Made by a program: the position numbers and the translations under genes | Shown: positions 35,014 through 36,503 of the stretch, one piece after another | How positions within the stretch are numbered: the stretch's first letter is position 1 | How the letters are laid out: each line of letters opens with the position of its first letter | Notes under the pieces: generated by a model | Told to the model about the DNA's origin: nothing | What the model saw: only the letters and a program-made list of their open reading frames with translations | Databases searched by the model: none | NCBI GenBank assembly: GCA_011048835.1 | Contig: DSDF01000033.1 | Location: 1-48,616, forward strand | Origin: Methanoculleus sp. | GTDB taxonomy: Archaea > Halobacteriota > Methanomicrobia > Methanomicrobiales > Methanomicrobiaceae | Direction of reading: 5' to 3' | Length of the DNA: 48,616 bases

Positions 35014-35664
35014 TCACACGCCTTTCGTTTCCCGGAAATAGCGGCAGCGAGCGCGGACGATGCAGCGCTCGCATGCCGGGTTCCGGGCTTTGCAGACGTT
35101 CCGCCCGTGCAGGATGAAGAGGGAGTTGATCATCTTCCAGCACGCACCGGGAAAGACGGCCATCAGGTCGCGCTCGATCCGGTCGGCGTCGGTGTGGTCG
35201 GTGAGACCGAGGCGGCGGGAGACCCGTTTGACGTGGGTGTCCACGGCGATCCCCTCGTGGATGCCGAGGGCGTGGCTTTGGACGATGTTAGCGGTTTTCC
35301 GGCCGACGCCGGGGATGGTGAGGAGGTCTTCCATGGTCGACGGCACCCTGCCGCCGAACTCCTCCGCCACCGCCGCGGCCGCGGCTTTGATGGTCTTTGC
35401 CTTGGTGCGGTAGAGGCCGATCCTGTGCAGGATCCTCTCGAGATCCTGCCGGTCAGCCGATGCCAGCGCCTCCGGCGTCGGGTACCGGGTAAAGAGCGTC
35501 TCCCGGATCTCGTTGACCGCCCGGTCGGTTGTCTGTGCGGAGAGAATGGTGAGGATGAGGGACTGGAAGGGGTTTTCAAAATGGATGAACGTGCGGGGCT
35601 CTTTTCCTGCGGCGTATTCTGTTGCGAGGGCGCGATAGATGGCGCAGGCGTCGTCCCGTCTCAT
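35014..35664 (-). CDS. nth: Endonuclease III
   Basis: Bifunctional DNA glycosylase/lyase for oxidised pyrimidines. Helix-hairpin-helix LLTIPGVGRKTANIV carries the catalytic K123, and the conserved aspartate is D142 in VDTHVKRV. The C-terminal 4Fe-4S cluster is complete: C191, C198, C201, C207 in the C-x6-C-x2-C-x5-C pattern. 216 residues. The ATG at 35664 lies only 4 bases after the 3' end of tRNA-Pro on the same strand, so the two probably share a transcript and 3' processing of the tRNA would leave an almost leaderless nth message. Confidence 0.94.
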   Translation of the reverse strand: MRRDDACAIYRALATEYAAGKEPRTFIHFENPFQSLILTILSAQTTDRAVNEIRETLFTRYPTPEALASADRQDLERILHRIGLYRTKAKTIKAAAAAVAEEFGGRVPSTMEDLLTIPGVGRKTANIVQSHALGIHEGIAVDTHVKRVSRRLGLTDHTDADRIERDLMAVFPGACWKMINSLFILHGRNVCKARNPACERCIVRARCRYFRETKGV

Positions 35665-35668
35665 GATA

Positions 35669-35743
35669 TGGGGCAGGGCAGATTCGAACTGCCGTCAAAG
35701 CGTCCCAAACGCTCTAGGATGGACCAGGCTACCCTACTGCCCC
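35669..35743 (-). tRNA. tRNA-Pro (TGG)
   Basis: Acceptor GGGGCAG (35743-35737) pairs with CTGCCCC (35676-35670), with A73 at 35669. The anticodon loop TTTGGGA gives anticodon TGG on a GAGCG/CGCTT stem, and the T arm is GGCAG-TTCGAAT-CTGCC. 75 nt, no intron, CCA not encoded. nth begins 4 bases downstream. Confidence 0.95.
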
Positions 35744-35780
35744 GTATGTCATCAAGTATGCGCATGCCCGTTAAAAATAC

Positions 35781-36503
35781 TTAACGTCTCCCGTCTCCCG
35801 ATATGGAGAGCGGATTCCGGTCGGTTTCGCTGACCACGGTCCCCGAGAAGGTGCCCTGCAGGACCGCCGTTTTCAGGGTCTCCGGGTCGCGCCCGTCGAT
35901 TACCACGAGCGGGATGCCGCTGCGCTGGATGACCTTGGCGGCGACGATGTCGATGACCGTATTGGCCCCCGCATCGAGACGCGAGCCGATGATGATGCGG
36001 AGCAGCTCGTCCCGCGTCAGGTGCTCAAAACGGCGGGCATCCGGAACTTTTTTGGGATCCGCGCTGTAAATGCCGTCCACCGAGGTCGCATTGATCATGA
36101 CATCGGCATGCACACTCTCGGCGAGCACCGCGGACACGGCATCGGTGGTCTGCGCCGGGGTGACGCCTCCCATGACCACGATCCTGCCCTGCCCGGAGAA
36201 CATGCGCGCCTCCTCGTAATTCGTGGCGATTTTCGGGTAGGCTGCATCCCCGAGCGCCCCGATGAGCAGGGCGGCATTGAGGCGGGTGACGGCGATCCCC
36301 AGTTCGTCGGAGAACGCCTCGTCGATTCCCAGTTTGCGCGCCGCGGCGATGTACCTCCGGGCCTCCCCTCCGCCCCCGATCACCACGTACAATGCACACT
36401 CCCGGGAAATATCGATCAATGCCTCCCTGTAGCGCTGGATGGTATTGGATTCAAGAGACGGGACGAGGACCGAGCCACCGAGTGAGAGCACAATGGTTTT
36501 CAT
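35781..36503 (-). CDS. pyrH: UMP kinase, archaeal PyrH
   Basis: Phosphorylates UMP to UDP in pyrimidine synthesis. Amino acid kinase fold: the phosphate loop MKTIVLSLGGSVL at the N-terminus, VVIGGGGEARRYI for substrate binding, MGGVTPAQTTDAVSA, and the ATP-site motif TSVDGIYSADPKK. 240 residues, the shorter archaeal form. ATG 36503 is chosen, since the frame upstream is not family-like, and a TATA box (36529-36536) about 30 bp before it implies a leaderless message. Confidence 0.93.
   Translation of the reverse strand: MKTIVLSLGGSVLVPSLESNTIQRYREALIDISRECALYVVIGGGGEARRYIAAARKLGIDEAFSDELGIAVTRLNAALLIGALGDAAYPKIATNYEEARMFSGQGRIVVMGGVTPAQTTDAVSAVLAESVHADVMINATSVDGIYSADPKKVPDARRFEHLTRDELLRIIIGSRLDAGANTVIDIVAAKVIQRSGIPLVVIDGRDPETLKTAVLQGTFSGTVVSETDRNPLSISGDGRR

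What the first reader, a model, noticed from the sequence alone, without database searches (positions are those of the whole stretch)
35664..35743. tRNA-Pro ends 4 bases before the nth start codon
Seen: A73 of tRNA-Pro is at 35669 and ATG of endonuclease III at 35664-35662 on the same strand, and no TATA box can fit between them. Inference: one transcript, with tRNA 3' processing by tRNase Z releasing an nth message with a 4-nt leader. Expression of a repair enzyme would then depend on tRNA maturation.
Basis: partly seen in the sequence, partly recalled or inferred. Interest (0 to 1): 0.6.

Follow-up and report, generated by a model that had tools for sequence, protein, structure and literature searches.

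The report
Order-wide tRNA-Pro/nth transcription unit
In an entire order of methane-making archaea the gene for a DNA-repair enzyme sits a few bases behind a proline tRNA gene with no room for its own promoter or ribosome-binding site, so its message is probably cut out of the tRNA precursor, a long-conserved, mitochondrion-like way of making an mRNA, although no transcript has been mapped.

Summary
It is not chance. In 156 Methanomicrobiales genomes (6 families, 38 genera) the same tRNA lies directly upstream of nth on the same strand in 154 of 154 testable loci. The gap is 2-19 nt (mode 6) in 141 and 26-718 nt in 13. None of 21 nth loci from other classes of the phylum has it. An AT-rich TATA-like block precedes the tRNA in 121 of 138; none lies inside the tRNA where an nth promoter would have to be. 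Only 1 of 139 short-gap nth starts has a Shine-Dalgarno match, against 48 of 123 neighbouring pyrH starts and 8 of 12 long-gap nth starts. Best reading: one transcript from the tRNA promoter; RNase Z cleavage after A73 frees the tRNA and leaves an essentially leaderless nth mRNA. Co-transcription is well supported; the cleavage-made message is inferred; regulation of repair by tRNA maturation is speculation. Exact 4-nt spacing is not conserved, tightness is. Two further tight pairs, tRNA-Gly(CCC)-DUF5612 and tRNA-Cys(GCA)-SepCysS-like, occur in parts of the order. Precedents: tRNA-Lys in the TK0306 5'-UTR of Thermococcus; mitochondrial tRNA punctuation.

The parts
35781..36503 (-). pyrH, archaeal UMP kinase, upstream neighbour; stop codon 37 nt before the tRNA
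   Evidence: TIGR02076 265.8 bits, cut-off 158; found on the same strand upstream of nth in 109 of 129 order loci, the remaining 20 having no pyrH hit in the stretch fetched
35771..35779 (-). TATA-like block TATTTTTAA, presumed promoter of the tRNA-Pro/nth unit, 28-36 nt upstream of the tRNA 5' end
   Evidence: sequence; an AT-rich octamer (7 or 8 of 8) lies in the same place in 121 of 138 relatives
35669..35743 (-). tRNA-Pro(UGG), intron-less, no encoded CCA; discriminator A73 at 35669
   Evidence: ARAGORN, Rfam RF00005; only one close copy in the genome
35665..35668 (-). 4-nt spacer TATC; predicted RNase Z cut between 35669 and 35668, so that this becomes the nth leader
   Evidence: sequence; spacer length distribution in relatives; the cut itself is inferred
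35014..35664 (-). nth, endonuclease III, 216 aa, ATG start
   Evidence: TIGR01083 above cut-off; PF00730, PF00633, PF10576

Best explanation
tRNA-Pro(UGG) and nth form one transcription unit, inherited from the ancestor of Methanomicrobiales. Transcription starts at the promoter just upstream of the tRNA, which is the genome's only close copy of this tRNA, and runs on into nth because no terminator or second promoter lies between. RNase P and then RNase Z process the tRNA. The RNase Z cut after A73 leaves an nth mRNA with a 4-nt leader here (2-19 nt in most relatives), too short for a Shine-Dalgarno, so nth is translated as a leaderless-type message. Shown: adjacency, conservation, absence of promoter-like sequence inside the tRNA, absence of Shine-Dalgarno, presence of RNase Z. 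Inferred: the shared transcript, the cut that makes the mRNA 5' end, leaderless translation. Not supported beyond plausibility: that nth output is regulated through tRNA maturation.
For: (1) tRNA-Pro(UGG) is directly upstream of nth, same strand, in 154 of 154 testable genomes of 6 families and 38 genera; the gap is 2-19 nt in 141. (2) None of 21 nth loci from other classes of the phylum has a tRNA there, and in three outgroup genomes nth and tRNA-Pro are unlinked, so the pair is a trait of this order. (3) Spacer sequences differ between genera while length stays short. (4) A TATA-like AT-rich octamer lies 20-45 nt upstream of the tRNA in 121 of 138; in the 20-50 nt upstream of the nth ATG, inside the tRNA, AT content never exceeds 6 of 8. 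(5) Shine-Dalgarno duplex of -4 kcal/mol or better: 1 of 139 short-gap nth, 48 of 123 pyrH, 8 of 12 long-gap nth; on the nth tree long gaps need about eight changes of state, at least five of them forced by well-supported branches. (6) Other tRNAs are followed by four or more T within 30 nt in 59 of 93 cases in three genomes; the window's tRNA-Pro has none, and 39 of 128 relatives do. (7) RNase Z is encoded (two fragments, at least one at a contig end). Methanogen RNase Zs cut after the discriminator and accept trailers of various lengths (PMC7479834).
Against: No transcript data exist here. About a third of relatives have four or more T shortly after the tRNA, some with six to eight T in the spacer, which in archaea may terminate part of the transcripts. 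Methanogen RNase Z was less active on a 150-nt trailer in vitro (PMC7479834) and the nth trailer is about 650 nt. Thirteen relatives have longer gaps and may use other signals. The Shine-Dalgarno comparison is partly mechanical, since the fixed tRNA 3' end fills the space where one would sit. The genomes are related, so counts are not independent events.
Confidence: 0.75

Rival explanations
1. nth has its own promoter inside the tRNA gene and is transcribed as a primary leaderless mRNA starting at or just before the ATG; tRNA processing plays no part.
For: Leaderless primary transcripts exist in methanogens (about 16% with leaders under 10 nt in Methanolobus psychrophilus, PMC5378194).
Against: The tRNA segment at the right distance is G+C-rich in every genome (best octamer 6 of 8 A/T in 9 of 139, otherwise 4 or 5), and tRNA sequence is constrained by tRNA function.
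Confidence: 0.1
2. Co-transcription without processing-dependent translation: nth is translated from the uncut precursor or from a pyrH-tRNA-nth read-through mRNA, and the tight gap is only genome compaction.
For: pyrH is on the same strand, typically 49-59 nt upstream of the tRNA, so read-through is possible; compaction bias would also give small gaps.
Against: A folded acceptor stem 2-10 nt before the AUG leaves no room for the ribosome's upstream footprint and no Shine-Dalgarno (inference). pyrH-tRNA spacing keeps room for a promoter while tRNA-nth spacing does not.
Confidence: 0.12
3. The adjacency is frozen synteny with no shared expression: the tRNA transcript ends before nth, and nth is made only by rare or unknown initiation.
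For: Some relatives have T-runs in the spacer, which can terminate archaeal transcription.
Against: nth would then have no recognisable promoter in 141 genomes; the window has no T-run between tRNA and nth; vertical inheritance alone does not explain why the gap stays under 20 nt while its sequence turns over.
Confidence: 0.05

Closest known systems
Thermococcus kodakarensis tRNA-Lys inside the 159-nt 5'-UTR of TK0306 (DEAD-box helicase), PMC4247193
   Same: Archaeal tRNA reported as apparently co-transcribed with the protein gene behind it.
   Different: One species, another tRNA and gene; conservation and leader length after the tRNA were not examined in the passages read.
tRNA punctuation of mitochondrial transcripts (own knowledge; leaderless mitochondrial mRNAs are treated in PMC9881170, listed, not read)
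   Same: tRNA excision defines the 5' end of a leaderless or nearly leaderless mRNA.
   Different: Organelle with its own translation factors; here one archaeal unit, and the cut has not been mapped.
Escherichia coli thrU-tyrU-glyT-thrT-tufB operon (own knowledge)
   Same: tRNA genes and a protein gene in one transcript.
   Different: tufB has a longer leader and a Shine-Dalgarno; different processing enzymes.
Leaderless mRNAs of archaea (Haloferax: 0-5 nt, PMC4983044; Methanolobus: under 10 nt, PMC5378194)
   Same: The predicted nth leader of 4 nt falls within both definitions.
   Different: Those are mostly primary transcripts; here the short leader would be made by RNA cleavage.

Membership tests
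Endonuclease III (nth) | Score above the curated TIGR01083 cut-off, with HhH-GPD and [4Fe-4S] signatures | tested here: met
   218.5 bits against 211.7; PF00730, PF00633 and PF10576 above their cut-offs
tRNA-Pro(UGG) | Cloverleaf with TGG anticodon over the Rfam gathering score | tested here: met
Dicistronic tRNA-mRNA unit | Same strand, close adjacency, promoter-like sequence upstream of the tRNA, none between | tested here: met
Dicistronic tRNA-mRNA unit | A single RNA spanning both genes | not testable with these tools
   no transcript data available
tRNA punctuation (tRNA cut makes the mRNA 5' end) | mRNA 5' monophosphate end mapped at the base after the tRNA discriminator | not testable with these tools
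   needs 5' end mapping
tRNA punctuation (tRNA cut makes the mRNA 5' end) | RNase Z encoded in the genome | tested here: met
   two complementary fragments of RNase Z on two contigs, one at a contig end (229 and 96.7 bits, each below the whole-protein cut-off)
Leaderless-type mRNA | 0-5 nt (or under 10 nt) before the start codon and no Shine-Dalgarno, if cut after A73 | tested here: met
   4 nt here; no Shine-Dalgarno in 138 of 139 short-gap relatives

The most novel reading that the evidence does not exclude
Methanomicrobiales use tRNA punctuation as a regular way to express protein genes: several tRNA genes (Pro-nth in all sampled genomes; Gly(CCC)-DUF5612 and Cys(GCA)-SepCysS-like in parts of the order) are read through, and RNase Z makes leaderless mRNAs from their precursors, tying the output of these enzymes, a DNA-repair glycosylase among them, to tRNA synthesis and maturation.
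Probability: 0.4. Interest if true: 0.72.

Novelty: new variant of a known kind. Interest (0 to 1): 0.55.

Why it matters
It would be a conserved archaeal case in which tRNA 3' processing, not transcription initiation, creates an mRNA 5' end, much as in mitochondria. It offers a set of natural variants (gaps from 2 to 718 nt, with and without Shine-Dalgarno) in which leaderless and leadered translation of one gene can be compared, and it makes RNase Z a candidate for control of a repair gene.

Tried and rejected
Conservation of exactly 4 nt was tested and rejected: gaps are 2-19 nt with mode 6. A promoter inside the tRNA was tested by AT content and found unlikely. A missing tRNA in four loci was traced to contig ends (L088, L322), a contig that begins inside the T arm (L147) and a run of N inside the tRNA (L154). 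Paper searches for this gene pair found nothing on it. The conserved block just before the tRNA 5' end is shared with other tRNA genes, so it is not special to this unit.

Full report
WHAT IS THERE. On the minus strand, in order of transcription: pyrH (archaeal UMP kinase, TIGR02076) ends with TAA at 35783-35781; a TATA-like block TATTTTTAA is at 35779-35771; tRNA-Pro(TGG) is at 35743-35669; then TATC; then nth from ATG at 35664 to 35014. The nth product passes the TIGR01083 cut-off.

CONSERVATION. nth-family matches were found in 226 of 232 genomes of the order. I took 156 nth loci from 6 families and 38 genera and ran ARAGORN on them. tRNA-Pro(TGG) is directly upstream on the same strand in 154. 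The other two, L088 and L322, stop at a contig end before reaching the place. The gap from A73 to the start codon is 2-19 nt in 141 loci (mode 6). It is 26-96 nt in eleven loci and 446 and 718 nt in two loci of one genus. The start codon is ATG in 151 of the 152 loci scored automatically. Spacer sequences differ between genera, so this is not just an unchanged stretch of DNA. In 21 nth loci from other classes of the phylum no tRNA lies upstream, and in three of those genomes the best tRNA-Pro match is far from nth or on another contig. Bacterial and other archaeal nth loci likewise have no tRNA close upstream on the same strand. The pair therefore arose in, or before the diversification of, Methanomicrobiales and was kept.

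PROMOTER AND TERMINATOR. An A/T-rich octamer (7 or 8 of 8) lies 20-45 nt upstream of the tRNA in 121 of 138 relatives. In the region 20-50 nt upstream of the nth start, inside the tRNA, the best octamer has at most 6 A/T and mostly 4 or 5. Among 93 other tRNAs of three genomes, 59 are followed by at least four T within 30 nt and 31 by at least five. For tRNA-Pro before nth the figures are 39 and 12 of 128, and the window's own has none. Some A+T-rich relatives do have T-runs in the spacer, so partial termination with read-through is possible there.

TRANSLATION. With 2-19 nt there is little or no place for a Shine-Dalgarno: 1 of 139 short-gap nth starts reaches -4 kcal/mol against the 16S 3' end. 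The neighbouring pyrH reaches it in 48 of 123, and the long-gap nth in 8 of 12, for example GGAGG in L209 and GGGAG in L335. On an nth tree the long gaps need about eight changes, at least five forced by well-supported branches. This natural contrast fits leaderless-type translation in the short-gap form. Part of the contrast is mechanical, because the tRNA 3' end occupies the place of the motif.

PROCESSING. RNase Z is encoded (two fragments). Characterised methanogen RNase Zs cut after the discriminator, need a mature tRNA 5' end and accept trailers of various lengths, less well at 150 nt (PMC7479834). A cut after A73 would leave UAUC-AUG. By the definitions used for Haloferax (0-5 nt, PMC4983044) and Methanolobus (under 10 nt, PMC5378194) this is a leaderless message. 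In the genomes tested the tRNA has one close copy, so its promoter must be active in growing cells. Whether nth level follows tRNA maturation in a regulatory sense is unknown.

NOT UNIQUE WITHIN THE ORDER. tRNA-Gly(CCC) lies 2-11 nt before a gene with an ACT and a DUF5612 domain in 13 of 30 loci, in three families; the loci of genus g19 have no tRNA there. tRNA-Cys(GCA) lies 3-30 nt before a long SepCysS-like gene in 9 of 11 loci of that form. The nth pair is the most widely kept of the three.

KNOWN RELATIVES. A tRNA-Lys inside the 5'-UTR of TK0306 in Thermococcus kodakarensis (PMC4247193) is an archaeal precedent for tRNA-mRNA co-transcription. Mitochondrial tRNA punctuation (own knowledge) is the closest mechanism. 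I found no paper on this pair; the library holds only openly licensed papers.

VERDICT. Co-transcription is likely (about 0.9 by my estimate); an RNase Z-made leaderless nth mRNA is likely but unproven (about 0.75); a regulatory role is open.

Noticed in passing
L356-L365, L379-L381: tRNA-Gly(CCC) lies 2-11 nt before an ACT/DUF5612 protein gene in three families of the order and not in others: a second tight tRNA-gene pair.
   Followed up: partly
L386-L390, L392-L395: tRNA-Cys(GCA) lies 3-30 nt before a long SepCysS-like gene, i.e. next to a gene whose family (SepSecS/SepCysS type) acts on tRNA.
   Followed up: partly
L145 and L239, between tRNA-Pro and nth: Two genomes of one genus carry 446 and 718 nt between tRNA-Pro and nth, possibly the trace of an insertion at the tRNA 3' end.
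   Followed up: no
upstream of tRNA genes in G000, G046, G157: tRNA genes share a TATA-like block and a second block close to the tRNA 5' end, roughly ATTGTARGGCA: perhaps a general start-site element of tRNA promoters in this order.
   Followed up: no
L329 (G137 nth locus) and SepCysS-like hits in G051, G052, G087, G118 and others: In-frame TGA (sometimes TAA) codons are reported inside these matches; sequencing errors, pseudogenes or alignment beyond the true start were not told apart.
   Followed up: no
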